Positions 3,263 to 59,122 of a stretch of 64,000 nucleotides of DNA are shown piece after piece (within the stretch, counting starts at the first letter, position 1; the number at the start of each line of letters is the position of its first letter). The notes beneath the pieces are model-generated. The model searched no databases. It worked only from the letters and a program-made list of their open reading frames with translations, and had not been told where the DNA came from. The translations under genes were made by a program, and so were the position numbers. Source of the stretch: Rufibacter latericius (GTDB taxonomy: Bacteria; Bacteroidota; Bacteroidia; Cytophagales; Hymenobacteraceae); the NCBI RefSeq assembly GCF_003721515.1, contig NZ_RJJD01000008.1, positions 627,666-691,665 on the forward strand. Direction: 5' to 3'.

Positions 3263-3294
3263 TTTAAGCCTTTTTTCCGAAAAACGGCCTTAAA
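3263..3294. repeat. 3'-end palindrome, copy 1
   Basis: Arms TTTAAGCC and GGCCTTAAA around a TTTTTTCCGAAAAA centre. It lies about 170 bp downstream of the SMP-30 gene stop at 3462 and about 80 bp upstream of the DUF4442 start. Confidence 0.7.
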
Positions 3295-3393
3295 TCAAAT
3301 CCCCAACCGCTCATTAAACGGTTGGGGATTTTGGTTGAAACTATCTCAGATCCTTGTTCTCAATTAGCTATTGTCGTAGGCAGCAGCTTCCAT

Positions 3394-3428
3394 GTTTTTA
3401 CGTCATTTCGGCAAAACAGGCTTGAAAC
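3394..3428. repeat. 3'-end palindrome, degenerate copy 2
   Basis: The right half CAAAACAGGCTTGAAAC is well kept and the left half is decayed. It begins 34 bp downstream of the SMP-30 gene stop. Confidence 0.5.
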
Positions 3429-3461
3429 AGCCTTTACTTCTAAATGATACACAGGGCGTAC

Positions 3462-4379
3462 TTACAAACCTTTCACCTTCATTTTCAGTCCATAGACAGA
3501 GCCCATGGCGGTAATAAACAGCGTAGACCTATCCTTTCCGCCGAACACCACATTGGCGGTCCAGTTCTCCTGGATGGGGATGTGCGCAATCTGCTGGCCT
3601 TCTTTGTCAAACACGGTAACGCCTTTGCCGGTGAGGTACACGTTTCCCTGTCTGTCTATGGTCATGCCGTCTGAGCCCATGTTGGCGAACAGCTTTTTAC
3701 CTGACAGCGAACCGTCTTTGTCTATGGTGTACTCATAGGTTTTACCGGCTTCAATGTCTGCCACGTAAAGCTTCTTCCCGTCAGGGGTGCCTACAATGCC
3801 GTTGGGTTTTACCAAAGTTGTGTCTACCGAGTAAAACTTCTTTCTATCAGGGCTCAGGTAATACACATATTCTCCGGCCTGCTGCCGTTCAGGGTTTCTG
3901 GTCCAGTAATCCCTTTTGTACAAAGGATCGGTGATGTACATGGCGCCTGTGGGGGAAATCCAGAGATCATTGGGGCCGTTGAGCGGTTTGCCTTTGTACT
4001 CCTTTACCAGCACGGCGGGCTTCCCTGTTTTGTCAAAAGACCACAGTTGGTTATCCATATCTGCTGCGGCGATAAGGTTGCCCTTCTGATCGAAATACAG
4101 CCCGTTGGACCTACCGGCCTGATCTGTGAACAAGCTGATCTTACCGGTACTGGCCGTCCATTTGTAAACCTTGTTGTTCGGCTGATCGGTGAAGTACACG
4201 TTCCCTTCCCGGTCTACGGCAGGGCCTTCGGTAAAGGCGTAGCCATCGCCAAGTTTTTCCAGCTTGGCGCCTTTGGCTATGATGGAATTCTTGTCTGTGA
4301 TCTGTGCTTTTAGCAAAGCAGGCAAAAGAAAGAAAAGGGCAGCGCCCGCAAATACTACAAGTACAGTTCGTTTCGTCAT
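3462..4379 (-). CDS. Secreted SMP-30/gluconolactonase-like beta-propeller
   Basis: A 305-residue protein with a signal peptide (residues 1-26, ending LKAQ), then a six-bladed propeller of the SMP-30/gluconolactonase/LRE family. Characteristic stretches are FTEGPAVDREGNVYFTDQP, GPNDLWISPTGAMYITDP and PNGIVGTPDGKKLYVAD; the conserved Glu, Asn and Asp of these motifs are the expected divalent-metal ligands. Family members hydrolyse sugar lactones, some act on other lactones or esters, so the exact substrate is open. Location is periplasmic or extracellular. Its ATG overlaps by 4 bp the stop of the upstream membrane-protein gene, so the two are co-translated. Confidence 0.88.
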   Translation of the reverse strand: MTKRTVLVVFAGAALFFLLPALLKAQITDKNSIIAKGAKLEKLGDGYAFTEGPAVDREGNVYFTDQPNNKVYKWTASTGKISLFTDQAGRSNGLYFDQKGNLIAAADMDNQLWSFDKTGKPAVLVKEYKGKPLNGPNDLWISPTGAMYITDPLYKRDYWTRNPERQQAGEYVYYLSPDRKKFYSVDTTLVKPNGIVGTPDGKKLYVADIEAGKTYEYTIDKDGSLSGKKLFANMGSDGMTIDRQGNVYLTGKGVTVFDKEGQQIAHIPIQENWTANVVFGGKDRSTLFITAMGSVYGLKMKVKGL

Positions 4380-4861
4380 TCTTGGTTTAATTTACTTTTC
4401 AGTTTATAGCCGTACCAAAGCCCGGCAATGGATACGGGAATGAGGCAGAGAATGGCCATCCAGGCGAACGGCTTCATGATGAAGTTCACCAGCCAGCCTT
4501 TTTCCAATGATCCGTTTGTGGCCTGCAAAAGCACTGTGGCCACAATGCAGATGATGGTGGAGAGCAGCACCACCTCCAGGCCCGAGAGCACCCCTCGCCA
4601 GGCAAATTCCCTTTTCCGCTGCATGATCTTCACGCCGGTACTTCTGCCAATCAGGAAAGCGAACAGCAGGCTGGACAAGACAAAAAGGACCACATTGAAA
4701 GCTCCCAGGTAAGTAACGAGGTCCCAGAAGGCCTGGACAGAACTGGTGGCCGAAAGCAGGAAGGTAAACAAGAGCACGGCAATGACCACCTCGGTGACCA
4801 GCGTTGCCCTGAGCGCGTAGGAAATCCCTTTCCTTTGCGCTTGTTCAATTGAGGTATCCAT
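4376..4861 (-). CDS. Four-helix integral membrane protein, unknown
   Basis: A 161-residue protein with four hydrophobic segments at about residues 18-38, 50-71, 88-112 and 128-150, a short charged N-terminus and a Lys-rich C-terminus, as in small inner-membrane proteins. I do not recognise a characterised family. It is the first gene of a two-gene unit and overlaps the secreted SMP-30 gene by 4 bp, so a shared physiological role is likely, but nothing in the sequence names it. The upstream 138 bp separate it from the aldehyde dehydrogenase gene and show no convincing terminator. Confidence 0.75.
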   Translation of the reverse strand: MDTSIEQAQRKGISYALRATLVTEVVIAVLLFTFLLSATSSVQAFWDLVTYLGAFNVVLFVLSSLLFAFLIGRSTGVKIMQRKREFAWRGVLSGLEVVLLSTIICIVATVLLQATNGSLEKGWLVNFIMKPFAWMAILCLIPVSIAGLWYGYKLKSKLNQE

Positions 4862-4999
4862 TAGGATTGTTGTTACTCGATGCTGACATCATCACCTGCT
4901 AACTTAATAACAGTGGCACGTTCCTACCCGAAAGAAATTCCTTCCAGATACCTTTGTCCTACTCTTGTACAACGCCTGAAATCCCGGCTTAGTTTGCTT

Positions 5000-6577
5000 T
5001 TAGAAGTCGAACTTGATGCCTTGGGCTAACGGCAATTCCCGCCCGAAATTGATGGTGTTGGTTTGCCGGCGCATGTAGAACCGCCACGCATCTGAACCAG
5101 ACTCGCGTCCGCCGCCGGTGTCTTTCTCACCCCCGAATGCCCCTCCAATCTCGGCCCCCGAGGTCCCGATGTTCACGTTGGCAATGCCGCAGTCAGAACC
5201 CCAGTGGCTCAGGAAGGCCTCGGTCTCCAGCAGGTTGGAAGAGAAAATGGACGACGACAAGCCTTGGCGCACCCCGTTCTGGATGTCGATGGCATTGTTC
5301 ACGTCACCGCTATATTTGATGAGGTACAGAATGGGCGCGAAGGTTTCTTCCTGCACGGTGTGGTACGAGTGCTCCGCCTCCACAATGGCAGGTGTCACGT
5401 AGGTACCGGTGGCATATTCCTCGCCTTCCAGCACTTCTCCGCCGATCAATAGATTTCCGCCCTCCCGCTGCACCCGTTCCAGAGCATCCAGAAAAGCAGC
5501 GGTGGCGTCTTTGTCAATGAGCGGACCTACCAGAATCCCGTGTTTCAATGGATCACCGATGGGAAGGTTCGGATAAACTTTCAGCAGGCGTTCCTTCACC
5601 TCGTCATAGATGCTGTCATGGATGATCAGACGGCGGGTAGACGTACAGCGCTGCCCGCAGGTACCCACGGCCCCAAACACCACTGCTCGCATGGCCATTT
5701 CCAGATCAGCGTTGGGCGTCAGGATGATGGCGTTGTTTCCGCCCAGTTCCAGCAAAGAACGCCCTAAACGCCGGCCCACGGCCTCGCCCACTTTCTTGCC
5801 CATGCGCGTAGAACCCGTCGCTGATACCAGCGGAACGCGTTCGTCATGCGCCATCTTACTCCCGATCACGGCATCGCCGATGATGATGCTGAACACACCT
5901 TCTGGCACTTGGTTCTCGCGCAGCACCTCCTGAGTAATCTGCTGACAGGCCACGGCCGTCAACGGGGTTTTCTCCGATGGTTTCCATACCACTACATCGC
6001 CACAGATCGCCGCCAGCATGGCATTCCAGCTCCAGACCGCCACCGGGAAGTTGAAGGCTGAGATCACCCCTACGATGCCCAGTGGGTGGTATTGCTCGTA
6101 CATGCGGTGCGTGGGCCGCTCTGAGTGCATAGTGTAGCCGTGCAACTGCCGGGACAAGCCCACCGCGAAATCGCAGATGTCAATCATCTCCTGCACTTCG
6201 CCCAGACCTTCCTGCAGGATCTTGCCCATTTCGTAACTCACCAGTTTGCCCAGCGGCTCTTTGTACTCGCGCAGCTTCTGCCCGATCTGGCGCACCACTT
6301 CGCCGCGCTTGGGCGAGGGCCACGTGCGCCACTCCAGAAACGCCTGCTGCGCCGTGGTGATCACCTGCTCGTAATCTTCCTCTGAGGCCATGTTCACGGT
6401 AGCAATGCGCTTGCCATTAGTAGGCGAATGGATGGCGCGGGTCTCTGCGTTGTTTTCTCCGCCCCAGCTTAAACCGGTGCTGTATGCGGGGTTGGAGTCC
6501 TGAATTCCCAGTTGAGAAAGTATATCAGTGATATCGGTTTTGGTTTCGGTCTGCATAAAAGTATTCTGGTTAAGCAT
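5000..6577 (-). CDS. Aldehyde dehydrogenase, ALDH7 (antiquitin-like) family
   Basis: A 525-residue NAD(P)-dependent aldehyde dehydrogenase. With the start at 6577, the catalytic Cys311 sits in GQRCTSTRRL, the general base Glu277 in LELGGNNA, and the oxyanion Asn in SAFNFPVA (about 176). The QRCTSTRR form and overall length match ALDH7, the alpha-aminoadipic semialdehyde (lysine breakdown) dehydrogenases; that substrate is inferred from family only. A second in-frame ATG at 6556 would shorten the protein by seven residues and is equally possible. The gene stands alone between a membrane-protein gene and the terminator of the protease gene upstream. Confidence 0.9.
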   Translation of the reverse strand: MLNQNTFMQTETKTDITDILSQLGIQDSNPAYSTGLSWGGENNAETRAIHSPTNGKRIATVNMASEEDYEQVITTAQQAFLEWRTWPSPKRGEVVRQIGQKLREYKEPLGKLVSYEMGKILQEGLGEVQEMIDICDFAVGLSRQLHGYTMHSERPTHRMYEQYHPLGIVGVISAFNFPVAVWSWNAMLAAICGDVVVWKPSEKTPLTAVACQQITQEVLRENQVPEGVFSIIIGDAVIGSKMAHDERVPLVSATGSTRMGKKVGEAVGRRLGRSLLELGGNNAIILTPNADLEMAMRAVVFGAVGTCGQRCTSTRRLIIHDSIYDEVKERLLKVYPNLPIGDPLKHGILVGPLIDKDATAAFLDALERVQREGGNLLIGGEVLEGEEYATGTYVTPAIVEAEHSYHTVQEETFAPILYLIKYSGDVNNAIDIQNGVRQGLSSSIFSSNLLETEAFLSHWGSDCGIANVNIGTSGAEIGGAFGGEKDTGGGRESGSDAWRFYMRRQTNTINFGRELPLAQGIKFDF

Positions 6578-6663: not shown

Positions 6664-6697
6664 GTTTCAGGCTTGATTTTCAAAAAAGAGGCCCAAA
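6664..6697. repeat. 3'-end palindrome, copy 3
   Basis: It begins immediately after the stop codon of the HtrA/DegP gene and ends 8 bp before that gene's terminator hairpin, so it is transcribed as 3' untranslated RNA. Confidence 0.6.
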
Positions 6698-8191
6698 TTA
6701 GCGACCCAACGCATAGTACGCCCGACGGCCGTCTGGGTAGACTCCTTCAATCAGGAGACCGCCGCGGCGGGTACTTTTCAGCACCTTGTCTACGTCTTGC
6801 GGGGCGTTGGTAGGGTTCTTATCAATGCTGGTGATGATGAAACCATCTTTCATGCCGGTTTCGGCAAAAGCGCTTTCCTCTACCCCGCTGATTTTCACCC
6901 CACCGGTGATGTCCAGTTTGTTCAGTTCCTGTTTGGTGGCTGCCTCAAACTTAGCGCCATCAATGGTCATGGACTTGGTGGAGTTAGGATCACGTTTTAC
7001 AAGCTCGGTGCTACCGCTGGCATTGCGTAACGTCACGTTGATGTCTTTCTCGCTTCCGCCACGCATAAATCCCACCTTGATTTTATCGCCCGGACGGTAT
7101 CTGGTCACTTGCTCCTGCAACTGGGCACTGGTGTTCACCTTAACGCCGTTGATTTGCGTGATCACATCACCTTCCTTCAAACCAGCGGTTTTGGCGGCAC
7201 TGCTTTCAGAGAAGCCGGCTACATACACCCCGTTCAAGGTTTTCAGGTTCTTTTCTTTGGCAAGCTCGGCATTCACTTCCTGCATCTGCACGCCCAATAA
7301 GGCACGTTGCACTTCGCCATATTTCAGAAGGTCATCCACCACTTTGCTCACGATGGACGAAGGAACCGCAAATGAATAGCCCGCAAATGTACCGGTCTGG
7401 GAAGCGATGGCGGTGTTGATACCCACCAGATCACCGTTCAGGTTCACCAGGGCACCCCCACTGTTACCAGGGTTCACGGCGGCATCGGTCTGGATGAAAG
7501 ACTCTACGCTCATGTTTCCGGCACCTTGAAGAATACCTACGTTACGGCCTTTGGCGCTCACAATACCCGCGGTTACGGTAGAGTTCAGGTTGAACGGGTT
7601 ACCCACGGCCAATACCCACTCTCCTACTTTCACTTTGTCTGAGTTTCCGTAGCGCAGGGCCGGAAGATTGTCAGCGTTGATTTTAAGCAGGGCGATGTCT
7701 GTGTTAGGATCTGTTCCTACCAAAGTGGCATCAAAGGTGCGTTTGTCATCCAGAATCACCTGGATTTTATCGGCACGGTCAATCACGTGGTTATTGGTCA
7801 CCACATACCCGTTAGAGGCAATGATCACCCCAGAACCCGAGCCCATGGCCGGTCCTTGCTGCGGCCGCTGATATCCTTCAAAGTCATCTCCGAAGAAATC
7901 ACGGAAGAACGGATGCACATTGCTGGGCGAACGGCTGGCCTGTACTTTATACTCGGTGGTCACGTGGACTACGGCCGGAGTCACGAGCTCTGCCGAGGTC
8001 ACGAAGTTCAAGCCTTCGGGCACTACTACGTCAGAGGAGCGCATGGCGCTGGTGTAGCGCACGTTGGTGTTTGGCAATTGTTGCCCGTTTACGGGCGCTT
8101 CATCTTCCAACAGTTTATAACCCCCAACGGCCACTCCCCCACCTACCATAGCAGAGAGCATCAGCCCCAACATAAGCTGTTTAGTTTTCAT
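6698..8191 (-). CDS. degP: Do-family periplasmic serine protease with two PDZ domains
   Basis: A 497-residue HtrA/DegP-type protease-chaperone of envelope protein quality control. An N-terminal hydrophobic segment (about 5-25) serves as signal or anchor. The trypsin-like domain runs about 65-285 with the triad His135 (TNNHV), Asp165 (NTDIALL) and Ser244 (GNSGGAL). PDZ1 covers about 300-385 and PDZ2 about 405-495. All catalytic residues are present. Its stop is followed directly by a repeat palindrome and a strong terminator. Upstream, TTG and TACTTTTC 20 bp apart (8224-8254) form a likely promoter. A small heat-shock gene lies just upstream on the same strand but is separated by its own terminator. 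Confidence 0.95.
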   Translation of the reverse strand: MKTKQLMLGLMLSAMVGGGVAVGGYKLLEDEAPVNGQQLPNTNVRYTSAMRSSDVVVPEGLNFVTSAELVTPAVVHVTTEYKVQASRSPSNVHPFFRDFFGDDFEGYQRPQQGPAMGSGSGVIIASNGYVVTNNHVIDRADKIQVILDDKRTFDATLVGTDPNTDIALLKINADNLPALRYGNSDKVKVGEWVLAVGNPFNLNSTVTAGIVSAKGRNVGILQGAGNMSVESFIQTDAAVNPGNSGGALVNLNGDLVGINTAIASQTGTFAGYSFAVPSSIVSKVVDDLLKYGEVQRALLGVQMQEVNAELAKEKNLKTLNGVYVAGFSESSAAKTAGLKEGDVITQINGVKVNTSAQLQEQVTRYRPGDKIKVGFMRGGSEKDINVTLRNASGSTELVKRDPNSTKSMTIDGAKFEAATKQELNKLDITGGVKISGVEESAFAETGMKDGFIITSIDKNPTNAPQDVDKVLKSTRRGGLLIEGVYPDGRRAYYALGR

Positions 8192-9609: not shown

Positions 9610-9637
9610 TCATCCCCCTACCCCCTTCAAAGGGGAC
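9610..9637 (+). repeat. CCCCCTTCAAAGGGG-type dispersed repeat
   Basis: TCATCCCCCTA followed by CCCCCTTCAAAGGGGAC. It is the same family as both ends of the inverted-repeat element at 35693-35869. Confidence 0.65.
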
Positions 9638-9696: not shown

Positions 9697-9753
9697 AAAA
9701 GCCTTCTGTTTAGAGCCCTTTTCCCAAAAACGGGCTCCAAACAGAAGGCTTTT
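9697..9753 (-). terminator. Long terminator with a nested 3'-end palindrome
   Basis: A 22-bp stem with one mismatch, starting AAAAGCCTTCTG and ending CAGAAGGCTTTT, 17 bp after the amidohydrolase stop. The inner part, 9708-9742 (GTTTAGAGCCC ... GGGCTCCAAAC), is copy 4 of the dispersed palindrome, so the outer terminator stem wraps around it. Confidence 0.85.
9708..9742. repeat. 3'-end palindrome, copy 4
   Basis: Inner portion of the amidohydrolase terminator. Arms GTTTAGAGCCC and GGGCTCCAAAC flank a TTTTCCCAAAAA centre. Confidence 0.7.
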
Positions 9754-11028: not shown

Positions 11029-11070
11029 GCCGTTTCAAGGCTGCTTCCTGAAAAACAGCCTTGAAACGGC
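11029..11070. repeat. 3'-end palindrome copy 5, perfect 15-bp stem
   Basis: GCCGTTTCAAGGCTG and its exact reverse complement around a 12-nt centre (CTTCCTGAAAAA). It lies 28 bp after the SPOR-like lipoprotein gene and just upstream of the amidohydrolase promoter. No T run follows on the minus strand, so it is not a canonical terminator. Confidence 0.85.
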
Positions 11071-15860: not shown

Positions 15861-15899
15861 CGCTTTAGACCCGCTTTTGCAGAAACCGCCCAGAAACGC
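15861..15899. repeat. 3'-end palindrome, degenerate copy 6
   Basis: CGCTTTAGACCCGC ... ACCGCCCAGAAACGC. The left arm is nearly identical to the copy at 29100-29139; the right arm has drifted. It lies 240 bp downstream of the GH1-reductase stop. Confidence 0.5.
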
Positions 15900-16069: not shown

Positions 16070-16123
16070 GTATCGTCCGTTTAGAGGCTGGTTTTTTAAA
16101 AACAGCCTCTAAACGGACGATAC
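16070..16123 (-). terminator. 54-nt terminator, perfect 21-bp stem with nested palindrome
   Basis: The arms 16070-16090 and 16103-16123 are exact reverse complements around a 12-nt centre (GTTTTTTAAAAA). A TTTTTGT run follows on the minus strand, 17 bp after the GH1-reductase stop. The inner part, 16079-16114 (GTTTAGAGGCTG ... CAGCCTCTAAAC), is copy 7 of the dispersed palindrome. Confidence 0.88.
16079..16114. repeat. 3'-end palindrome, copy 7
   Basis: Inner section of the 16070-16123 terminator. Stem bases GAGGCTG/CAGCCTC differ from other copies but pair perfectly. Confidence 0.75.
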
Positions 16124-16140: not shown

Positions 16141-18381
16141 CTATGCCTGCGCGGCAAAGGGCATTTCGTCTTCTGTGGTATTCTTTGGCCGGAACGAAAA
16201 CTCAGTGGCATGCAGGAACCGGCGCAACGCATCTTCTACGGAAGGCAACACGGCTCGTTTTTCAGTTTCCAACGCCGAAGAGGCGGGTCTGGGGGCGGGT
16301 AAATTCAAGCTGGCCTGGGGCACTGCCTGTAGCCAGGGGCTTGGTTCCAGCCCTGCCAGGTTGGCCGCCAACTCAGCGAATTTCGCCCAACTGTAGGTTC
16401 CCTGGTTGGCCAGGTGCCAGATGCCGCTTTCTTCATCGATCAGCAGATCCAGCGCAGAGTTCACCAGATCAGGCACGTACGTTGGCGTCACGAAACTGTC
16501 CTCGGCGGCCAGGAACGACTCTTGGTGGGCGATGGATTTCAGGGCCTGGTACACAAAGTTGTGGCCATCCCATGGTCCGAAAAACGCACTGGTCCTGATG
16601 ATCAGGGCAGCGGGCATGGTCTCCAGTATCTGCTCCTCGGCTAGGGCCTTACTGGCGCCGTACACATTCACCGGGTTAGGTTGGTCTGCCTCTGAATACG
16701 GTGATGCCTTTCCTCCGTCAAACACCAGGTCTGAGGAGAAAGAAACCAGCCCGATGTTCTGGGCCTGGCATACCTTCGCCAGATTTACGGGGCCCAAAGT
16801 GTTCTCACGGTAGCAGGCTTCGGGTTCCTGTTCAGCGTCGTCTACGCGCACGTAACCGGCGGTATTCACCACTGCCCAAGGTCTGTATTTCTTTACCGCC
16901 TTTTCCACCGAAGCGGCATCAGCGATGTCCATGTCCTGGCGGGAAAGCAGCACGTACGGAATTCCTCTTACCTCGCAGATTCGGCCGAAGGCTTTTCCTA
17001 GGGTTCCGGTAGCTCCAGTGACCAACAGTGGTTGCACCGTCACTTCCTCTATTTGCCGCAATGCCTCAGAAGAAACATTCCAGCCTTCTGGGGTGTCTGG
17101 CAAAGACGGATACAGACTGCGGCAAACGCGCTTCCACCAGCCGTCTATTTTCAGGAGAGGATGGCGTTCTGCCCCAATTGGTAAACCTTGAATGAATCTG
17201 GAAACCGCGGTTCTGGCAGGTACGCTCCCGTTCCGAAGATCGAAGGCACCCATCTCATAGTGTCCGTTCTGCTGCGTGAGCAAAGAGTTCCAGTCATAAG
17301 CGCCCAGCAAGGACCAGGCAGTGACTGCCGCTACGTTTTTGCCCTGTTTTCTTAAAAACGAGGCAGAATCCCAGACATCGGCGAGCCAGCGCATCTGCTC
17401 CTCACGGGTGCAACACAAATGGGCCTCGGTGATGGCCACAGGAATATCATAGCGGGCACAGGCCTGTTCCAGGATGTTTTGCACCCCCAGCGGTGTGGCT
17501 GTCTGCACCCGTACAGCCTCCACATCGGCGTACTTTTGGTAGGCATTGCTGCCGTGCGTGTGCCAGGGGTAATCAATGATGCGCTCGTCCAGGTACCGCT
17601 CACTGGTGACGTAGTAATTTACACCTATGACATCGGGCGGACAAGGCCGCTGCACCATCTCCAAGAGAGTTTCTTCGGGCACCTTGGCTTCGCGCAGGTA
17701 GTTCCACATGGGGTGCTGCGAGTCTACCTTGCCGCAGAGCAGGTCCCAGGAAAGCCAGCGGCGTTGGTTCTCGAAATCTGCCTGGTACTGCAAGGCCGGG
17801 GTGCTGTGGGAATAGCCCAGGTCATCGGTCTGCACCAGTTTGGCCTGAGGGTTTATTTCCCTGATGGCCTGCATGGCCAGGCGGGTACCGTTGAGTTGAT
17901 TTAGTAAAGCTTTTGCAAAGGAAGCGTCGTCTTTGGTGTGAGGATACCAGAAGCCATACAGTGCACTGAACCGAGCCGTGGTAAGGGGTTCATTGACGGG
18001 GGTGTAATACATGACCCACGGAAATTGCTGGGCCACCGACCGCGCGTACTGCGCAAATTTCTGGGGGAAATCGTCGTCTAGAAGGTTGGTATATCGGGGG
18101 CCGCTGCCATGATGCAGCAGCCCCACGATAGGATCAATGTTCAGTTCCCGAAGCCGGTCCAGACGTTCTGTCGCCCAGCTCCAGTCTTGTTGTTCCGGGT
18201 GCTCTGGGGCTACACTTTCCCACAAGACCGGGTACCGCAATTTTTTGATGCCCAACTCGGAAAACAGATCCAGGTCTGAAAGCCGGTGCGCATGCCCGCT
18301 CTGTGCAAGCTGGTCAAAGTACTGGTCACCTACACGGTTGACGGTACACTCAACGCCTCCCCAAAGCTCAATGTTGGCCAT
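16141..18381 (-). CDS. Fusion of GH1-type glycosidase and RmlD-like sugar-nucleotide reductase
   Basis: A 746-residue two-domain protein. Residues 1-400 resemble family 1 glycosidases: acid/base Glu131 in TPVNEP, a GVNYYVTS stretch at about 253-260, nucleophile Glu319 in AITEAHL, and a late W-S-L-L-GAYDW motif. Residues about 450-725 are an extended short-chain reductase of RmlD type: NAD(P)-binding GATGTLG at 456-462, SSD at 549-551, and catalytic YGASK (Tyr574, Lys578). The family enzyme reduces dTDP-4-keto-rhamnose, but no rmlABC genes are present nearby. No signal peptide, so cytoplasmic. It overlaps the glf gene by 14 bp. A joint role in making or editing a surface sugar is inference. 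Confidence 0.88.
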   Translation of the reverse strand: MANIELWGGVECTVNRVGDQYFDQLAQSGHAHRLSDLDLFSELGIKKLRYPVLWESVAPEHPEQQDWSWATERLDRLRELNIDPIVGLLHHGSGPRYTNLLDDDFPQKFAQYARSVAQQFPWVMYYTPVNEPLTTARFSALYGFWYPHTKDDASFAKALLNQLNGTRLAMQAIREINPQAKLVQTDDLGYSHSTPALQYQADFENQRRWLSWDLLCGKVDSQHPMWNYLREAKVPEETLLEMVQRPCPPDVIGVNYYVTSERYLDERIIDYPWHTHGSNAYQKYADVEAVRVQTATPLGVQNILEQACARYDIPVAITEAHLCCTREEQMRWLADVWDSASFLRKQGKNVAAVTAWSLLGAYDWNSLLTQQNGHYEMGAFDLRNGSVPARTAVSRFIQGLPIGAERHPLLKIDGWWKRVCRSLYPSLPDTPEGWNVSSEALRQIEEVTVQPLLVTGATGTLGKAFGRICEVRGIPYVLLSRQDMDIADAASVEKAVKKYRPWAVVNTAGYVRVDDAEQEPEACYRENTLGPVNLAKVCQAQNIGLVSFSSDLVFDGGKASPYSEADQPNPVNVYGASKALAEEQILETMPAALIIRTSAFFGPWDGHNFVYQALKSIAHQESFLAAEDSFVTPTYVPDLVNSALDLLIDEESGIWHLANQGTYSWAKFAELAANLAGLEPSPWLQAVPQASLNLPAPRPASSALETEKRAVLPSVEDALRRFLHATEFSFRPKNTTEDEMPFAAQA

Positions 18382-19610: not shown

Positions 19611-19668
19611 TAGTGAATTCCATATCTTACCTGTACTCCTTTTCAGGAGAGAAATTTCTGCTGTGTGA

Positions 19669-19700
19669 TTTAGGGCGGTTTTCTGAAAAGTGGCCTTAAA
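19669..19700. repeat. 3'-end palindrome, copy 8
   Basis: TTTAGGGCGGTTTTCTG followed by AAAAGTGGCCTTAAA, 34 bp downstream of the glycosyltransferase stop at 19735. Confidence 0.7.
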
Positions 19701-19734
19701 GGGCTAGTCTAACCCCATCACCTGAAGCAAAGCT

Positions 19735-21786: not shown

Positions 21787-21910
21787 GCCTGATTTGTAAA
21801 ATAAGGAATAGGTACTTCAGATCCAGCGCCCGGAAAATAATTTCGGCCTTAACGCTGGCCAAGAACTAGCAGCATAGAATCTTCTTCTACCGAACAATAT
21901 TTTTATACTC

Positions 21911-21944
21911 GTTTTTGGCTTTTACTAAGAAAACACCCTTAAAA
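21911..21944. repeat. 3'-end palindrome, copy 9
   Basis: GTTTTTGGCTTTTAC followed by GAAAACACCCTTAAAA. It ends 76 bp downstream of the GT2 stop at 22020. Confidence 0.55.
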
Positions 21945-22019
21945 TAGGTTGGCTTTCTATTTATAGAATTTCTAGACAAGAAACCCTGTAATACAGAGTG
22001 CTTCCATGGTAATAATTTG

Positions 22020-22852: not shown

Positions 22853-22887
22853 GTTTTGGATATGTTTTTACGAAATCGGGCCTAAAG
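22853..22887. repeat. 3'-end palindrome, copy 10
   Basis: GTTTTGGATATGTTTTTAC followed by GAAATCGGGCCTAAAG. Its last bases include the dapF stop codon (22882-22884), the closest approach of any copy to coding sequence. Confidence 0.55.
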
Positions 22888-23652
22888 CCGGATCTCGCCT
22901 TTGAATACCTGCTCGGCTGGCCCAATGAGGAACACGTTTTTGAACCCGTGGCCTTCTTTCTCAAAGCTCACCTGCAGCTCGCCGCCTAGCACCCTGATGT
23001 GCACCGGGCTCTCATACCCCGCCCGGCTCGCGGACAAGGCTGCCGCCGTTACGCCGGTGCCGCAGGAGAAGGTCTCGTCTTCCACGCCGCGCTCATAGGT
23101 GCGCACAAACAGCTTGTTTTCGGGCAGATGCTCTACAAAGTTCACGTTGGTTCCCTGGGCCTGGAAACGGTCTAAATAGCGCACGGCGCGGCCTTCTGCA
23201 AACACATTCAGGTGCTCCAGGGCTTCTACCTGTTTCACGTAATGCGGCGACCCGGTGTCCAGGAAGGTAGCCTCGGCCAAATCTTCCACAGCGTCCACGT
23301 CTTTCATCTGCAGGTGCACTAACCCATCTTTCAAGAAGGCCTGGTGCGGTCCATCGGCGGCGATAAAATAGGCTTGGTCCTCCACCACGTCCAGGAACTG
23401 GGCGAAGGCCACTAAACAGCGCCCGCCGTTGCCGCACATAGAGCTGGGCCGCCCGTCGGCGTTGTAGTAGACCATCTCAAAATCAAAGCCTTCCTTGGGT
23501 TGCAGCAGCATGAGACCATCGGCTCCTATGCCTTTCCGGCGATCGCATAGAAAAGCCACCTGCTCCTGACTAAGCTGGATGGTTTGGTCGCGGTTGTCCA
23601 GCACCACGAAGTCGTTACCGGTGCCCTGATATTTATAGAAAGTTAACTTCAT
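22882..23652 (-). CDS. dapF: Diaminopimelate epimerase
   Basis: A 256-residue cofactor-free epimerase converting LL- to meso-diaminopimelate, for lysine and peptidoglycan synthesis. Start chosen at ATG 23652, giving the family's usual N-terminus MKLTFYKYQGTGNDFV; a longer frame to 23724 is unsupported. The two catalytic cysteines are in MCGNGGRC (about residue 73) and SCGTGV (about residue 205). FTRYERG/ETFSCGTG-like segments at the end are intact. Cytoplasmic. Its stop codon overlaps a copy of the dispersed palindrome. The divergent methyltransferase gene begins 270 bp away. Confidence 0.95.
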   Translation of the reverse strand: MKLTFYKYQGTGNDFVVLDNRDQTIQLSQEQVAFLCDRRKGIGADGLMLLQPKEGFDFEMVYYNADGRPSSMCGNGGRCLVAFAQFLDVVEDQAYFIAADGPHQAFLKDGLVHLQMKDVDAVEDLAEATFLDTGSPHYVKQVEALEHLNVFAEGRAVRYLDRFQAQGTNVNFVEHLPENKLFVRTYERGVEDETFSCGTGVTAAALSASRAGYESPVHIRVLGGELQVSFEKEGHGFKNVFLIGPAEQVFKGEIRL

Positions 23653-23789: not shown

Positions 23790-23825
23790 GTTTCAAGGCT
23801 GTTTTCCAGAAAACGACTTCTAAAC
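23790..23825. repeat. 3'-end palindrome, copy 11 (divergent region)
   Basis: GTTTCAAGGCTGTTTTCCA followed by GAAAACGACTTCTAAAC. It lies between the divergent dapF and methyltransferase starts, the clearest exception to the downstream-of-a-gene rule. Confidence 0.65.
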
Positions 23826-23922: not shown

Positions 23923-24810
23923 ATGTACTCTTTCCTGACCACCAGCGCCTGGACCGATTATGAACTGATTGACTGCGGCAACTTTGAGAAACTGGAGCGC
24001 TTTGGAGACTACGTGCTGGCCCGCCCCGAGCCACAGGCCGCCTGGGACAAGCACCTCTCGGAACGCGAGTGGGAAAGACTGGCGCAAGCGACCTTCAAGC
24101 GCGAGAAAGGCAATCAGGAGAAAGGACAGTGGCAACTCAAAAAAGGCATGGCCGAGCAATGGTTCATCAACTACCGCTACAACGACCTGAAACTGCGGTT
24201 CCGGTTAGGCTTGTCCTCCTTCAAACACGTGGGGCTGTTCCCCGAGCAAGACCCCAACTGGCAGTTCATCTTTGACCACACACGGGCGCTGCCCGGCAAG
24301 CCGAAGGTGCTGAACATGTTTGCCTATACCGGTGGAGCCTCCCTGGCCGCCAATGCCGCCGGCGCTGATGTCACCCACTTAGACTCCGTGAAGCAAGTAA
24401 ATTTCTGGGCCCGCCAGAACATGGAAGCCAGCAACCTGGACAACATCCGGTGGCTCGTGGAAGACGCCATGAAATACGCCCGCCGCGAGGTGAAGCGCGG
24501 AAACAAATACCAAGGCATCATCCTGGACCCTCCAGCCTACGGCCGCGGCCCCGACGGTGAGAAATGGCAACTGGAGGAACAGATCAACGAGCTCATCAAA
24601 CTCTGCGCTGAGTTGCTTGACCCGGAGAATAACTTCTTTGTGATCAACCTGTATTCCCTCGGGTTTTCAGCCCTGATTCTGGATAACCTCATCAAAGCGT
24701 CGTTCGGCAACACCGTGCGCAACGAGGAACTGGGCGAGCTCTACCTGGAGGACCAAGCCAAACGAAAATTACCGCTGGGTACGTTTTTCCGGTTCAGCTC
24801 GGTGAAGTAG
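23923..24810 (+). CDS. Class I SAM-dependent methyltransferase, probable rRNA methylase
   Basis: A 295-residue methyltransferase of the Methyltrans_SAM (RlmI/RlmK-like) group that methylates 23S rRNA; the exact nucleotide is not determined here. A preceding module with the FRLGLSSFKHVGLFPEQ stretch (about 85-101) leads to the SAM-binding motif LNMFAYTGGASLAA (about 127-140), THLDSVKQ for the ribose-binding Asp, and catalytic motif IV LDPPAYGRGP (about 204-213). No N-terminal PUA-like domain is visible, so it is shorter than E. coli RlmI (396). Own promoter, downstream repeats. A tRNA or other RNA target is possible. Confidence 0.83.
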   Translation: MYSFLTTSAWTDYELIDCGNFEKLERFGDYVLARPEPQAAWDKHLSEREWERLAQATFKREKGNQEKGQWQLKKGMAEQWFINYRYNDLKLRFRLGLSSFKHVGLFPEQDPNWQFIFDHTRALPGKPKVLNMFAYTGGASLAANAAGADVTHLDSVKQVNFWARQNMEASNLDNIRWLVEDAMKYARREVKRGNKYQGIILDPPAYGRGPDGEKWQLEEQINELIKLCAELLDPENNFFVINLYSLGFSALILDNLIKASFGNTVRNEELGELYLEDQAKRKLPLGTFFRFSSVK

Positions 24811-24956: not shown

Positions 24957-24992
24957 GTTTTTGGCCTTCTTTTTATAAAACTGGCTCTAAAC
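24957..24992. repeat. 3'-end palindrome, copy 12
   Basis: GTTTTTGGCCTTCTTTTTA followed by TAAAACTGGCTCTAAAC, about 147 bp downstream of the methyltransferase stop. Confidence 0.6.
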
Positions 24993-29099: not shown

Positions 29100-29139
29100 G
29101 CGCTTTAGACCCGTTTTCTGGAAAACAGGCCTAAAGCGC
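29100..29139. repeat. 3'-end palindrome, copy 13
   Basis: GCGCTTTAGACCC ... AACAGGCCTAAAGCGC around TTTTCTGGAAAA, about 118 bp downstream of the MuiA-like stop at 29257. Its outer arms GCGCTTTAG/CTAAAGCGC pair perfectly. Confidence 0.8.
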
Positions 29140-32131: not shown

Positions 32132-32172
32132 AATAAGACGGTCACTTCTTAGGTAGAAGTGACCGTCTTATT
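32132..32172. terminator. Bidirectional terminator with 18-bp perfect stem
   Basis: AATAAGACGGTCACTTCT and its exact reverse complement around TAGGT, between the convergent Ldh and CPBP genes. T-rich flanks on both sides allow use in both directions. Confidence 0.85.
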
Positions 32173-32205
32173 TTGAGCATGTTTTCATCAAAACGGGCTT
32201 AAAAC
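32171..32205. repeat. 3'-end palindrome, copy 14
   Basis: TTTTGAGCATGTTTTCATC followed by AAAACGGGCTTAAAAC. It ends one base before the CPBP stop codon and touches the bidirectional terminator. Confidence 0.65.
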
Positions 32206-35621: not shown

Positions 35622-35656
35622 GTTTTACCCCCGTTTTCCTGAAAACAGGCCCAAAT
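35622..35656. repeat. 3'-end palindrome, copy 15
   Basis: GTTTTACCCCCGTTTTCCT followed by GAAAACAGGCCCAAAT, starting 2 bases after the metalloprotease stop. The terminator overlaps its last bases. Confidence 0.65.
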
Positions 35657-35681
35657 CCCACCTCCAACCGAGGTGGGATTT
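35653..35681 (+). terminator. Terminator of the DUF5117 metalloprotease
   Basis: An 11-bp stem AAATCCCACCT / AGGTGGGATTT with a 7-nt loop, then TTTTT. Confidence 0.85.
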
Positions 35682-39171: not shown

Positions 39172-39206
39172 GTTTTAGGCCTATTTTCAAGAAAACAGGC
39201 TTAAAA
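39172..39206. repeat. 3'-end palindrome, copy 16
   Basis: GTTTTAGGCCTATTTTCAA followed by GAAAACAGGCTTAAAAA. Begins 2 bp after the tldE terminator. Confidence 0.75.
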
Positions 39207-39255
39207 AGTGAATCACCTTCTTCTTTCGCCACCTATCCCGCAGGAAACCGTACCC

Positions 39256-41182: not shown

Positions 41183-41217
41183 TTTTTAGGGCTGTTTTAA
41201 AGAAAACAGCTTCAAAC
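41183..41217. repeat. 3'-end palindrome, copy 17
   Basis: TTTTTAGGGCTGTTTTAAA followed by GAAAACAGCTTCAAAC, starting 2 bases after the hscA stop and 8 bp before the terminator. Confidence 0.75.
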
Positions 41218-41225
41218 CATTTGAT

Positions 41226-41328: not shown

Positions 41329-41365
41329 GTTTTTAGGCATACTTTCCGGAAAACGGCCTCAAAAC
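41329..41365. repeat. 3'-end palindrome, copy 18
   Basis: GTTTTTAGGCATACTTTCCG followed by GAAAACGGCCTCAAAAC, about 100 bp downstream of the ftsB/divIC stop at 41466. Confidence 0.7.
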
Positions 41366-41371: not shown

Positions 41372-41409
41372 TTGTCATCTTGGAAAGATCTTGTGGGCGA
41401 ACTAGAAAG
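41372..41409 (+). repeat. Solo end of the 24852-type element
   Basis: TTGTCATCTTGGAAAGATC plus TTGTGGGCGAACTAGAAAG, 35 of 38 identical to 24852-24889, without the right inverted end. Confidence 0.7.
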
Positions 41410-41872: not shown

Positions 41873-41908
41873 GTTTTTGTCCTGTTTTCTACAAAAGAGG
41901 TTCAAAAC
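41873..41908. repeat. 3'-end palindrome, copy 19
   Basis: GTTTTTGTCCTGTTTTCTAC followed by AAAAGAGGTTCAAAAC, 30 bp downstream of the eno stop, between stop and terminator. Confidence 0.6.
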
Positions 41909-43232: not shown

Positions 43233-44345
43233 TTAAGAATTCTTTTCTTTTTCCAGCATCTCCACGAACAGGTCGAATAGATACTCTGAGTCATGCGGTC
43301 CCGGAGAAGACTCTGGGTGATACTGCACAGAGAAAGCCGGTTTGTTCTTTATCCTGATGCCTTCAACGGTATTATCGTTCAGGTTGATGTGGGTGACCTC
43401 CACATTAGGGTGATTCTTCACCGCTTCTGCATCTACCGCAAACCCGTGGTTCTGCGAGGTAATCTCGCTTTTACCGGTAATAAGGTTTTTAACAGGATGG
43501 TTTAAGCCACGGTGGCCATTGTGCATCTTGTAGGTAGGAATGCCATTGGCCTGAGCCAGAATCTGGTGCCCCATACAGATGCCAAACATCGGTTTTTCAA
43601 TGGCCAGGATCTGCTCCACGCTTTTCACGGCTTCGTTGGTCACCGCTGGGTCACCAGGGCCATTGGAGATGAAGTATCCGTCTGGTCCCCATTCTTCCAT
43701 TTCCTCAAAGGTAGTACCATAAGGGAACACCCGGCACTCACATCCTCTTATAGTAAGATTATTCAGGATGTTGCGTTTCACCCCCAGGTCCAGTACAGCT
43801 ACTTTGAAGCGGAAACCTTCTACTGGCAAATCATACTGAGTTGGAGTGGTTACTTTGGAAGAGAGCTCCAAACCTGCCATAGAAGGCACTTCCAGAAGCT
43901 GGCTTTTCAGCAAATCAATATCCGTAATTTCTGAAGAAATGATAGCGTTCATCACTCCTTTATCACGCACGTAACGCACCAACTCACGGGTATCAATTTC
44001 ACAGATTCCCACAATACCGGCTTTCTCAAAGTACTCCTGCAAAGATCCTTCAGCGGTCTTTCTGGAAAAATGATGCGAAAACTCCTTACACACCAACCCT
44101 TTAATCTGAACGTTGCCAGACTCTACTTCTTCTGGCTGAACCCCGTAGTTGCCTACGTGAGAAACGGTGGTGATGACAATCTGTCCATAGTAGGAAGGAT
44201 CAGTAAAGATCTCCTGATACCCCGTCATGCCTGTGTTAAAACAGACCTCTCCGCCGGTAGTTCCAATTCTCCCAAGGCTCTTACCCCGGAAAACAGTGCC
44301 GTCTTCCAGCACTAATACTGCGTCAGTTGTTGTATGAAGCTTCAT
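43233..44345 (-). CDS. carA: Carbamoyl-phosphate synthase small subunit
   Basis: A 370-residue glutaminase subunit supplying ammonia to CarB for carbamoyl phosphate (arginine and pyrimidine synthesis). N-terminal CPSase_sm_chain domain: LEDGTVFRGKSLG, GEVCFNTGMTGYQEI. C-terminal class I glutaminase domain: nucleophile Cys in FGICMGHQILA (about 253-263) and the His/Glu dyad in SVQYHPESSPGPHD. No carB is next to it, so the large subunit lies elsewhere. A -7 box TATTTTTG sits 18-25 bp upstream. The rplQ terminator immediately precedes that box. Confidence 0.97.
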   Translation of the reverse strand: MKLHTTTDAVLVLEDGTVFRGKSLGRIGTTGGEVCFNTGMTGYQEIFTDPSYYGQIVITTVSHVGNYGVQPEEVESGNVQIKGLVCKEFSHHFSRKTAEGSLQEYFEKAGIVGICEIDTRELVRYVRDKGVMNAIISSEITDIDLLKSQLLEVPSMAGLELSSKVTTPTQYDLPVEGFRFKVAVLDLGVKRNILNNLTIRGCECRVFPYGTTFEEMEEWGPDGYFISNGPGDPAVTNEAVKSVEQILAIEKPMFGICMGHQILAQANGIPTYKMHNGHRGLNHPVKNLITGKSEITSQNHGFAVDAEAVKNHPNVEVTHINLNDNTVEGIRIKNKPAFSVQYHPESSPGPHDSEYLFDLFVEMLEKEKNS

Positions 44346-46043: not shown

Positions 46044-46649
46044 TTACTTAGAGTAAAGCTCGACAATCAGCTGCTCCTGAATTTTCTCAGGGATCTGATC
46101 ACGCTGTGGATTAGAGATGAACTTACCGGCCATTTGACCACCATCCCACTCCAACCAGGTGAAAGCGCGAGCATTACGGCCAGCAAGGCTGTGCGTAATA
46201 GCTTCTAATGATTTTGATTTCTCGCGTACACTTACCACATCACCTGGACGCAGGGTGTAAGAAGCGATGTTCACCACATGTCCATTTACCTGGATGTGGT
46301 TATGGTTTACCAATTGTCTGGCACCACGTCTTGTTGGAGCAATACCCAAACGGTAAACAGTGTTGTCTAATCTTGCCTCTAAAAGAGCAAGTAAGTTTTC
46401 ACCGGTAATACCTGTTTTACGGGCAGCTTTGTCAAACAAGTTCTCAAACTGTTTCTCCAATACACCATAGATGTATTTGGCTTTCTGCTTCTCCATTAAC
46501 TGGATAGCGTACTCAGATTGTTTCTTTCTACGACCACGGCCGTGCTGGCCTGGACCGTACGCTTTTTTAGCTAAAGCTTTGCTTGGTCCAAAAATTGGTT
46601 CGTTGTATCTTCTAGAGATTTTACTCTTAGGGCCTGTGTATCTTGCCAT
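46044..46649 (-). CDS. rpsD: Ribosomal protein uS4
   Basis: A 201-residue primary 16S-binding protein that nucleates the 30S body. The N-terminal half begins [17 protein letters not shown] and has no cysteines, so it is the zinc-free form. The S4 RNA-binding domain includes [20 protein letters not shown] and [21 protein letters not shown]. In many bacteria S4 represses its own operon; no operator was identified here. Between rpsK and rpoA. Confidence 0.98.
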
Positions 46650-58162: not shown

Positions 58163-58163
58163 C

Positions 58164-58784
58164 TTATTTCTCAACTACAATAAATGAATTTTTAGCGCCC
58201 GGGATAGAACCGCTAACTACAAGTAAATTTTGCTCTGGCATAATACGTAACACGCGCAGGTTTTGAACCTTCACACGGTCACCGCCCATTCTACCAGCCA
58301 TGCGCATTCCTTTGAATACCCGTGATGGCCAAGAGCAGGCTCCAATTGAACCAGGGTGACGTGCTCTGTTGTGCTGACCGTGAGTCTGGCCACCAACACC
58401 ACTAAAGTTGTAACGCTTTACAACCCCTTGGAAACCTTTACCTTTTGAAGTGCCAACTACATCAACGAATTCGCCTTCTTCAAACAGGTTTACATCTACT
58501 GAATCTCCCAGTGAGAAAGAAGCTACGTCTTCCAGTCTGAACTCTACCAACTTTTTCTTAGCGGTAGTGTTTGCTTTCGCGAAGTGTCCGGCAAGCGCCT
58601 TGCTTACTCTTTTAACCTTCTTCTCTCCGTACCCAAGCTGAACAGCTGTATAGCCGTCTGTTTCTTGCGTTTTAACCTGAGTTACTACGCATGGTCCTGC
58701 TTGAATCAAAGTACAGGCCACGCTCTTCCCTTCAGGAGTGAAGAGGCTTGTCATTCCGATCTTTTTACCGATAATTCCAGGCAT
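58164..58784 (-). CDS. rplC: Ribosomal protein uL3
   Basis: A 206-residue 50S protein reaching the peptidyl-transferase centre. Segments: [90 protein letters not shown]. First gene of its transcript, behind a promoter at 58849-58879, and separated from rpsJ by 406 bp. Confidence 0.98.
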
Positions 58785-58848
58785 TCTACTTTTTTATTTA
58801 AACAATTAAAATTAACTACCCGTAATAGGGGGTCTATTTTCGGGAGTG

Positions 58849-58879
58849 CAAAGTTCTATATTTAATTTTTATTTTACAA
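58849..58879 (-). promoter_or_regulatory. Promoter of the rplC-led ribosomal operon
   Basis: Minus strand: TTG at 58877-58879, a 20-bp A/T-rich spacer, and GAACTTTG at 58849-58856 (close to TAnnTTTG). The rplC ATG is 65 bp downstream. Confidence 0.55.
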
Positions 58880-58999
58880 GCCCTGCTAAATTATTTGTTT
58901 TCAGATACTAATGTATTTTCATCCATGTATCTCGCTGCCTGTAAATTTTGAGTAGCCCTTTAACTCTCATCTTTCCTAAATGATTCCTTCCTCTTCCCT

Positions 59000-59035
59000 G
59001 TTTTCAGCTTAGATTTTGAAAAACAGGCTCTAAAC
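59000..59035. repeat. 3'-end palindrome, copy 20
   Basis: GTTTTCAGCTTAGATTTTG followed by AAAAACAGGCTCTAAAC; right half close to consensus, left half drifted. About 155 bp downstream of rpsJ. Confidence 0.6.
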
Positions 59036-59087
59036 GGAAGAATTTTCCTTGCACCTCTTTTTTTGGAAGTAAATAACTTTCAGGAAA

Positions 59088-59122
59088 GTTTTTAGCTTCT
59101 TTTCCGAAAACAGACTTAAAAC
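59088..59122. repeat. 3'-end palindrome, copy 21
   Basis: GTTTTTAGCTTCTTTTCC followed by GAAAACAGACTTAAAAC, about 70 bp downstream of rpsJ, just past the terminator. Confidence 0.75.

What the first reader, a model, noticed from the sequence alone, without database searches (positions are those of the whole stretch)
3263..59122. A dispersed 35-nt palindrome marks the 3' ends of genes, about 21 copies
The pattern GTTT-stem-TTTTCnnGAAAA-stem'-AAAC occurs at 3263, 3394, 6664, 9708, 11032, 15861, 16079, 19669, 21911, 22853, 23790, 24957, 29100, 32171, 35622, 39172, 41183, 41329, 41873, 59000 and 59088 (start positions), about one per 3 kb. No copy lies wholly inside a gene; the dapF copy overlaps the stop codon. 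About 19 of 21 lie 0 to about 240 nt downstream of a stop codon, on both strands. At degP, the DUF5117 metalloprotease, hscA and eno, the order is stop codon, palindrome, terminator, so the element is in the 3' untranslated RNA. It is missing from the gap-free 42-59 kb operon. Possible roles include a 3'-end or mRNA-stability element, a REP-like mobile repeat, a protein-binding site, or a DNA-uptake-like sequence that often sits in terminators.
Basis: partly seen in the sequence, partly recalled or inferred. Interest (0 to 1): 0.8.

Follow-up and report, generated by a model that had tools for sequence, protein, structure and literature searches.

The report
Genus-wide chromosomal DNA palindrome with dialects
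Bacteria of the genus Rufibacter carry very many copies of a 36-letter mirror-symmetric DNA mark along the chromosome, mostly at the same places in different species but spelled in a species-specific way, which suggests an unknown protein that reads the cell's own chromosome.

Summary
The palindrome is real and far more abundant than reported. A symmetric 36-bp matrix (GTTTTnRGSCYGTTTTCnnGAAAACRGSCYnAAAAC) finds 32 copies in the window and 489 in 800 kb of the same genome, against 0-1 in randomised sequence (about 3,500 per genome by extrapolation). The genus is Rufibacter: a strict pattern hits all 16 genomes of the genus 11-820 times, and 104 genomes of five sister genera 0-2 times each. It is not mainly a 3'-UTR RNA element: 87 of 489 copies lie inside genes (8-11 after synonymous shuffling), most copies lack arm covariation, and an R. 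tibetensis plasmid has 1.7 copies per 100 kb against 47 on 100 kb of its chromosome. Copies do prefer gaps just past stop codons, and about 11% look like terminator hairpins. Positions are mostly orthologous across species, yet species have their own consensus dialects. Best reading: a double-stranded recognition site of an unidentified oligomeric protein, evolving somewhat like the uptake sequences of Neisseriaceae. Whether it serves DNA uptake, chromosome architecture or something else is not shown.

The parts
3261..3296 (.). copy, 37.7 bits, intergenic, followed by a terminator-like hairpin (by eye)
3393..3428 (.). copy, 24.7 bits, intergenic
6664..6699 (.). copy, 32.3 bits, overlaps the stop codon of the - strand trypsin/PDZ (DegP-like) gene 6698-8191
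9707..9742 (.). copy, 28.3 bits; near-perfect hairpin extending into the flanks, A/T runs at the base (terminator-like)
11032..11067 (.). copy, 36.3 bits; near-perfect hairpin; touches the called 5' end of the M20 peptidase ORF
15862..15897 (.). copy, 27.8 bits, intergenic
16079..16114 (.). copy, 37.1 bits; perfect outer stem extending into the flanks
17335..17370 (.). strong copy, 31.7 bits, wholly inside the 746-aa ORF 16141-18381 (-)
19667..19702 (.). copy, 29.6 bits, intergenic; orthologous site occupied in 7 of 8 congeners aligned (not called in G048)
21910..21945 (.). copy, 20.9 bits, intergenic
22853..22888 (.). copy, 32.6 bits, overlaps the stop of ORF 22882-23724 (-)
23790..23825 (.). 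copy, 37.6 bits, in a gap with no 3' end by the ORF list (- then + genes)
24957..24992 (.). copy, 32.2 bits, between tandem + genes; orthologous site called in 4 of 5 congeners aligned
29102..29137 (.). copy, 39.7 bits, near-perfect hairpin
32170..32205 (.). copy, 35.8 bits, abuts the stop of ORF 32206-33000 (-); terminator-like hairpin on its left (by eye)
35622..35657 (.). copy, 38.0 bits, 1 nt past the stop of the DUF5117 protein gene, before a terminator-like hairpin
39172..39207 (.). copy, 41.4 bits, directly after a terminator-like hairpin
41183..41218 (.). copy, 35.8 bits, 1 nt past the stop of the Hsp70-family gene; orthologous site occupied in 9 of 9 species aligned
41330..41365 (.). 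copy, 35.3 bits, same convergent gap
41873..41908 (.). copy, 35.7 bits, downstream of the enolase gene; orthologous site occupied in 9 of 9 species aligned
59000..59035 (.). copy, 30.8 bits, intergenic
59087..59122 (.). copy, 28.8 bits, intergenic
62695..62730 (.). copy, 20.9 bits, inside ORF 62609-62923 (-)
2179..2214 (.). weak copy, 17.1 bits, inside an ORF
5734..5769 (.). weak copy, 16.5 bits, inside the aldehyde dehydrogenase gene
24663..24698 (.). weak copy, 15.8 bits, inside an ORF
30828..30863 (.). weak copy, 17.0 bits, inside an ORF
33218..33253 (.). weak copy, 14.1 bits, inside an ORF
44047..44082 (.). weak copy, 17.7 bits, inside an ORF
46414..46449 (.). weak copy, 15.4 bits, inside an ORF

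Best explanation
The 36-bp dyad is a double-stranded DNA recognition site for an unidentified sequence-specific protein of Rufibacter that binds as a dimer or as two dimers: four A/T tracts, two per arm, 11 bp (about one helical turn) apart. It marks the chromosome about every 1-3 kb at permissive places: mostly intergenic, often close behind stop codons, sometimes inside genes. Sites mostly stay at orthologous positions while their sequence follows a species dialect. SHOWN by computation: abundance, genus restriction within the genomes searched, dyad, lack of arm covariation in most copies, orthologous positions, dialects, information far above need, presence in genes, depletion on one plasmid, somewhat even spacing, and a minority that look like terminator hairpins. 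INFERRED: that a protein binds it and that dialects follow changes in that protein. FURTHER INFERRED, my most likely single role: a self-recognition signal kept by molecular drive, as for DNA uptake sequences (donor DNA with a better site is taken up or recombined preferentially), about 0.35. A chromosome-structuring protein is the close rival (about 0.27). The confidence below is for the protein-site reading as a whole, of which uptake, architecture and road-block are sub-readings.
For: 489 copies in 800 kb against 0-1 in one Markov null. Strict pattern: 16 of 16 Rufibacter 11-820 hits, 104 sister-genus genomes 0-2 each, reversed-pattern control 0-3; a stricter pattern: 129 in the own genome and 0 in 295 other Bacteroidota, no other Rufibacter being in that draw. 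Own copies: dependence mainly between neighbouring bases (mean z 5.4), little between distant ones (mean z 0.32; 3 of 284 pairs p<0.01), as for protein contacts and unlike copied blocks. Arm pairing of matrix-selected copies does not exceed partner-shuffled arms in own, G022, G048. 16-species comparison: 1550 species-pair gaps with copies in both, 325 in one only, 1700 in neither (pairs share sites, not independent). Tract positions 92-100% identical between orthologues in six species pairs. Dialects: leave-one-out, 923 of 1015 tests (each copy of six high-information species against the five others) favour its own species. Information 25-49 bits against 10.7-11.4 needed to locate the extrapolated number of sites. 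In genes: 87 against 8-11 after synonymous shuffling, frames 30/30/27. R. tibetensis plasmid 4 copies in 235 kb against 47 in 100 kb of chromosome. Spacing CV 0.99 against 1.20 (sd 0.05) in a null keeping coding/intergenic numbers.
Against: No binding protein was identified; HU (one in each of 14 Rufibacter, 1-3 in 46 others) and ComEC (41 of 41) do not track the motif. A tract-only selection shows an arm-complementarity excess in the own genome (3.76 v 3.43 pairs of 9, z 4.9), in G045 (z 3.3) and weaker in some others, none in G048 and G022; in the own genome it comes from a near-perfect-hairpin minority. Own dyad pairs also show some dependence (mean z 2.25; 4 of 12 p<0.01), and G048 shows distant dependence (19 of 129 pairs p<0.01), so subfamilies or partly decayed copies exist there. 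Concerted evolution in the strict sense is only partial: orthologues are less alike than unrelated copies of both genomes in 7 of 15 high-information pairs, by 0.03 or more in four, all with G045; in 8 of 15 they are not (7-17 sites per pair). Free positions diverge faster than gapped flanks in 4 of 6 pairs, which leaves some in-place replacement possible. No uptake motif known to me is a dyad that needs both halves; free half-sites are only 1.1-1.8 times a null. Natural transformation of Rufibacter was not tested. Even spacing may partly reflect one site per gap; plasmid depletion could mean recent arrival.
Confidence: 0.72

Rival explanations
1. Sub-reading of the protein-site view: sites of an abundant chromosome-structuring (nucleoid-associated, insulator or segregation) protein. 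Dialects arise because the protein and its many sites co-evolve; intergenic 3'-side places are simply the least harmful.
For: Same anatomy: dyad with A/T tracts one turn apart, chromosome-wide, orthologous, fairly even spacing, depleted on a plasmid.
Against: 25-49 bits at some 1,700-3,500 sites is far above what locating the sites needs, and dialect change at so many selected sites is hard without drive. HU does not track the motif; no candidate gene.
Confidence: 0.27
2. REP-like mobile palindrome moved by a Y1 (RAYT) transposase, now decaying.
For: High copy number, mostly intergenic, palindromic; Y1 transposase domain in 15 of 16 Rufibacter; near-identical copies somewhat more frequent than in matrix samples; a hairpin minority; some distant linkage in G048.
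Against: Y1 genes are in all six genera, so do not track the motif; G017 has 564 strict copies and no Y1 hit. Of 10 Y1 neighbourhoods looked at (of 45 Y1 matches in the genus), the gene was called in 6: 3 have a copy within 300 nt on one side, 0 on both, against 73 and 24 of 104 other genes in the same loci. Positions are mostly orthologous, distant positions nearly unlinked in own copies, most arms do not covary.
Confidence: 0.08
3. A 3'-UTR RNA hairpin for termination or mRNA stability.
For: Bias to the stop side of gaps and to convergent gaps. 39 of 348 tract-defined copies pair at 7-9 of 9 arm positions, against about 10 expected; 18 of the 39 extend pairing into the flanks, 23 have A4/T4 at the stem base, 37 lie in convergent or tandem gaps.
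Against: The other 309 of 348 do not exceed shuffled pairing, and 49 of them lie in genes, 51 in divergent gaps. Copies in genes exceed the synonymous null about tenfold in all frames. 0 of 13 convergent plasmid gaps of 60 nt or more carry it, 4 of 5 on the chromosome segment. No Rfam match in the window at gathering threshold.
Confidence: 0.1
4. Sub-reading of the protein-site view: a road-block or insulator site that stops RNA polymerase at gene ends through a bound protein.
For: 3'-side bias, 67 of 87 convergent gaps occupied, protein-site signature.
Against: In-gene copies are about tenfold enriched over the synonymous null rather than avoided; plasmid gene ends lack the site; 52 of 90 divergent gaps have it.
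Confidence: 0.1

Closest known systems
DNA uptake sequences (DUS) of Neisseriaceae, with dialects (PMC3630211, PMC2397512; passages read)
   Same: High copy number, restricted to one lineage, dialects following phylogeny, permissive core-genome positions, occurrence in genes, a share forming terminator-like inverted repeats.
   Different: Here the unit is a 36-bp dyad without free half-sites; host is a Bacteroidota genus; no receptor, competence or uptake test.
Uptake signal sequences (USS) of Pasteurellaceae (PMC1626085 and PMC7811141; search listing and abstract starts only)
   Same: High copy number; recalled, not from a call: lineage variants and an extended motif with A/T tracts one helical turn apart.
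   Different: USS core is 9 bp (abstract start of PMC1626085); recalled: not a dyad and more often within genes.
HIP1 of cyanobacteria (PMC4390886; abstract start in the search listing only)
   Same: Lineage-wide, very frequent DNA palindrome of debated function.
   Different: 8-bp GCGATCGC with overlapping methyltransferase sites; here 36 bp with dialects.
REP/RAYT elements (PMC3733652; passages read)
   Same: Short palindromic, mostly intergenic, often downstream of genes, high copy.
   Different: REPs there carry a GTAG or CGTC tag and stems with complementary changes; here I see no tag (by eye), most arms do not covary, and no transposase link was found.

Membership tests
DNA uptake sequence / USS | promotes uptake or transformation of DNA that carries it | not testable with these tools
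   needs a wet-lab uptake assay
DNA uptake sequence / USS | hundreds to thousands of copies, lineage-restricted, chromosome biased | tested here: met
   (one whole plasmid and 40 kb of a second contig examined)
DNA uptake sequence / USS | species dialects at conserved positions | tested here: met
   dialects are weak in low-information species
DNA uptake sequence / USS | short directional unit that works singly | tested here: not met
   half-sites outside palindromes only 1.1-1.8 times null
DNA uptake sequence / USS | host has DNA-import machinery | tested here: inconclusive
   ComEC domain in 41 of 41 genomes of all six genera, so not discriminating; no receptor sought
REP/RAYT | stem complementarity kept in individual copies | tested here: not met
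   absent in most copies, present in an 11% minority
REP/RAYT | associated Y1 transposase flanked by the repeat | tested here: not met
   3 of 6 called Y1 genes with a copy on one side, 0 on both, against 73 and 24 of 104 control genes; no correlation across genera
REP/RAYT | mobility: presence/absence at orthologous loci | tested here: not met
   22 both, 1 and 0 single in the closest pair; no strains of one species were available
Intrinsic terminator / known RNA family | hairpin plus U tract at gene 3' ends | tested here: not met
   23 of 39 hairpin-like copies but 32 of 309 others have T4/A4 at the stem base; no Rfam match in the window
Nucleoid-protein site | bound by a chromosome-structuring protein in vivo | not testable with these tools
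   no candidate; HU does not track the motif

The most novel reading that the evidence does not exclude
Rufibacter has evolved, once in its ancestor, a chromosome-wide self-recognition code in Bacteroidota: a 36-bp dyad read by an unknown oligomeric protein, kept at thousands of fixed loci by molecular drive and diverging into species dialects, functionally parallel to but unrelated to the uptake sequences of Neisseria and Haemophilus.
Probability: 0.35. Interest if true: 0.9.

Novelty: new variant of a known kind. Interest (0 to 1): 0.73.

Why it matters
High-copy, high-information DNA motifs with species dialects at fixed loci are known to me only from uptake sequences in two proteobacterial families. 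A third, independent case with a different architecture (a 36-bp dyad) in Bacteroidota would let one test how such motifs arise, how dialects shift at very many sites, and whether drive or selection maintains them. If it is instead a chromosome-structuring site, its information content per site would be unusually high for so many sites.

Tried and rejected
RNA reading: an alignment of 22 window copies gave little covariation above shuffle (75.0 v 73.0% paired, 37 of 500 shuffles as high). The matrix-selected genome set agreed (9.59 v 9.61 pairs), but that selection could hide covariation, so I repeated it with a tract-only pattern and found a real minority of hairpins; the first statement was softened accordingly. 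The 13-species pooled excess (z 6.7) is inflated by mixing dialects; single species range from z -0.7 to 3.3.

In-place block replacement was considered after (half of an element seemed swapped at the enolase site); in the closest pair free positions diverge as fast as the flanks (0.76 v 0.763), and in G022-G054 too (0.642 v 0.643), but in the other four pairs they are 0.11-0.20 less alike than the flanks (flanks were aligned with gaps and pairs filtered on flank identity of 0.55 or more, both of which favour flanks; 4-21 copies per pair). So replacement is not required but not excluded.

Element-free tracts were suspected to be foreign islands; Pfam on 10 of the 24 genes that one search listed from four tracts showed SusC/SusD-type polysaccharide loci and a cytochrome oxidase operon among others, hence mostly ordinary operons.

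RAYT, ComEC and HU were tested as explanatory genes; none tracks the motif. In one search the distant-pair z-scores for G022 and G048 were spoilt by invariant columns; one search repeats them on variable columns only and is the one used.

Literature: searches (open-licence PMC library only) listed no paper on this repeat that I could recognise from titles and abstract starts; one search returned 0 papers. One search was the search for uptake-sequence dialects.

Caveats: gene calls are from a simple hexamer scorer of mine, not a standard annotator; species matrices are symmetrised, so their consensus is palindromic by construction (arm dependence was tested on raw copies); the 11-, 14-, 16- and 18-bit thresholds (22 and others; 48; 72) are mine.
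Full report
OBSERVATION. All 21 listed copies exist within 2 nt of the stated starts, but the exact core TTTTCnnGAAAA occurs only four times in the window (0.17 expected). 22 window copies align without gaps. A symmetric 36-position matrix started from them and refined on 800 kb of the same genome (contig C10) finds 489 copies at 14 bits or more, against 0-1 in one order-3 Markov sequence, i.e. about 3,460 per 5.67-Mb genome by extrapolation. In the window this matrix finds 32 copies, 25 of them above 20 bits, 9 of 32 wholly inside ORFs.

ANATOMY. GTTTTnRGSCYGTTTTCnnGAAAACRGSCYnAAAAC. The strongest positions are T3-T4, T14-T16, A21-A23 and A33-A34: two A/T tracts per arm, 11 bp apart. Half-sites outside palindromes are only 1.1-1.8 times a null, so both arms seem needed. 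Among own copies, dependence is concentrated between neighbouring bases (mean z 5.4), weaker for dyad pairs (2.25) and nearly absent for distant pairs (0.32; 3 of 284 with p<0.01). G022 is similar (2 of 88 distant pairs), but G048 shows distant dependence (19 of 129), so some subfamily or decay structure exists there.

TAXONOMIC RANGE. A strict pattern hits all 16 genomes of the own genus (11-820 places) but each of 104 genomes of five other genera of the family only 0-2 times; the reversed-pattern control gives 0-3. A stricter pattern finds 129 places in the own genome and none in 295 other genomes of the phylum; that draw held no other genome of the genus.

NOT MAINLY RNA. Among matrix-selected copies arm pairing does not exceed that of partner-shuffled arms: own genome 9.59 v 9.61 (400 non-redundant of 489), G022 13.70 v 13.87 (76 copies), G048 12.84 v 13.35 (108 copies). 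A selection that looks only at the tracts shows an excess in the own genome (3.76 v 3.43 of 9 pairs, z 4.9) and in G045 (z 3.3), smaller values elsewhere, none in G048 and G022. In the own genome it comes from a minority: 39 of 348 copies pair at 7-9 of 9 positions where about 10 are expected; 18 of these extend pairing into the flanks (5 of 309 others), 23 have an A4 or T4 at the stem base (32 of 309 others), and 37 lie in convergent or tandem gaps. I read these as copies that double as terminators.

POSITION. In the window plus 800 kb (16-bit threshold), 67 of 87 convergent, 206 of 414 tandem and 52 of 90 divergent gaps hold a copy; in tandem gaps of 150 nt or more 152 copies lie in the stop-side half and 50 in the start-side half. 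87 of 489 copies are wholly inside called genes, against 8-11 after synonymous codon shuffling (five shuffles), and frames are 30/30/27. Spacing is more even than a null that keeps coding and intergenic numbers (CV 0.99 v 1.20, sd 0.05), and 73 in-gene copies of 18 bits or more lie further from intergenic copies than random coding positions do (median 1036 v 764, p 0.015). The 235-kb R. tibetensis plasmid has 4 copies (1.7 per 100 kb) against 47 in 100 kb of its chromosome; of gaps of 60 nt or more, 0 of 13 convergent, 3 of 79 tandem and 0 of 17 divergent on the plasmid have one, against 4 of 5, 20 of 44 and 3 of 6 on the chromosome segment. 40 kb of the separate 155-kb contig C2 of G048 have 3.

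EVOLUTION. Eno-centred regions of 58-100 kb from 15 congeners and the 64-kb window were compared (enolase confirmed). Density is 33-56 per 100 kb in all 16, null 0-1. Over all species pairs, 1550 orthologous gaps have copies in both species, 325 in one, 1700 in neither (pairs share sites, so these are not independent). In the closest pair (G051, G037; 11-bit threshold) it is 22 both, 1 and 0 single, 31 neither. Alignments show copies at the same place in up to nine of nine species. Species consensus sequences differ, e.g. G048 GTTTTCGGGCTCATTTC, G045 GTTTAGGGGCTGTTTTT, G022 and its sister G017 GTTTTTGGCCTGTTTTC; in low-information species the middle positions are too variable for a clear dialect. 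Leave-one-out matrices favour a copy's own species in 923 of 1015 tests among six high-information species. Orthologues are less alike than unrelated copies of either genome in 7 of 15 pairs of these species, clearly (by 0.03 or more) in four, all with G045 (e.g. G022-G045 0.669 v 0.774 and 0.761); in the other 8 they are not (sisters G022-G017 0.884). Between orthologues the tracts are 92-100% identical in six species pairs; free positions equal the flanks in two pairs and are less alike than the flanks in four. Information is 25-49 bits, while 10.7-11.4 bits would locate the extrapolated number of sites.

MECHANISM. Neighbour-limited dependence, a dyad, absence of arm covariation in most copies, orthologous positions and constrained contact tracts indicate a double-stranded site for an oligomeric protein. 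Excess information, dialects, permissive chromosomal positions, presence in genes and fairly even spacing together recall uptake sequences: passages of PMC3630211 and PMC2397512 report DUS dialects matching phylogeny, inverted-pair association with terminators, preference for permissive core-genome places, high conservation, and molecular drive as a model. I therefore rank a drive-maintained self-recognition signal first (about 0.35) and a chromosome-structuring site second (about 0.27). Neither is shown. The binding protein is unknown: the Y1 transposase domain (15 of 16 Rufibacter, all six genera), ComEC (41 of 41 genomes) and HU (one in each of 14 Rufibacter, 1-3 in 46 others) do not track the motif.

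MEMBERSHIP. It is not filed as a DUS/USS: uptake is untested and the single-unit feature is not met. It is not a REP by the tests made. It is best called an unassigned high-copy dyad motif family of Rufibacter that evolves somewhat like uptake sequences.

Noticed in passing
window 24852-24889 and 41372-41409: A second dispersed repeat (TTGTCATCCTGAAAGGATCTTGTGGGCGAACTAGAAAG type, 92% between the two copies), close to palindromes 24957 and 41330; a similar stretch occurs in G022 in the gap orthologous to 24957.
   Followed up: no
window 9605-9635 and 35825-35855: A third short repeat, AGAARTCATCCCCCTACYCCCTTCAAAGGGG, 94% identical.
   Followed up: no
L145 15768-15891 (G051), and the matching place in 14 other congeners: A strongly conserved non-coding leader (core GTTGCTAGATAT found in 15 of 15 congener regions, not in the window) directly upstream of a called gene start; possibly a regulatory leader. 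The exact core was not found in the 80 enolase loci of other genera.
   Followed up: partly
contig C10 of the own genome, about 320537, 414573 and 700638 (0-based positions in the joined stretch): Half-elements arranged outward as long inverted repeats with A/T runs, looking like terminators built from half-sites.
   Followed up: no
L205 (G006 contig C3, matches NZ_CP012645.1): A record listed as an R. tibetensis plasmid carries dihydroorotase and glycosyltransferase genes, has a stretch similar to hundreds of unrelated plasmid records (rDNA-like, my inference) and 3 copies of the palindrome in 7.5 kb, the chromosomal density; probably a chromosomal fragment.
   Followed up: partly
window 16141-18381 (-): One ORF that joins a glycosyl hydrolase family 1 match to an RmlD-type epimerase domain.
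   Followed up: no
G024:C1:218564-218595: One typical-looking element in a genome of another genus of the family; possibly transferred DNA or chance.
   Followed up: no
G048, 240 kb examined: Distant positions within copies are statistically linked in this species (19 of 129 pairs p<0.01) but hardly in two others; subfamilies or partly decayed copies could explain it.
   Followed up: no
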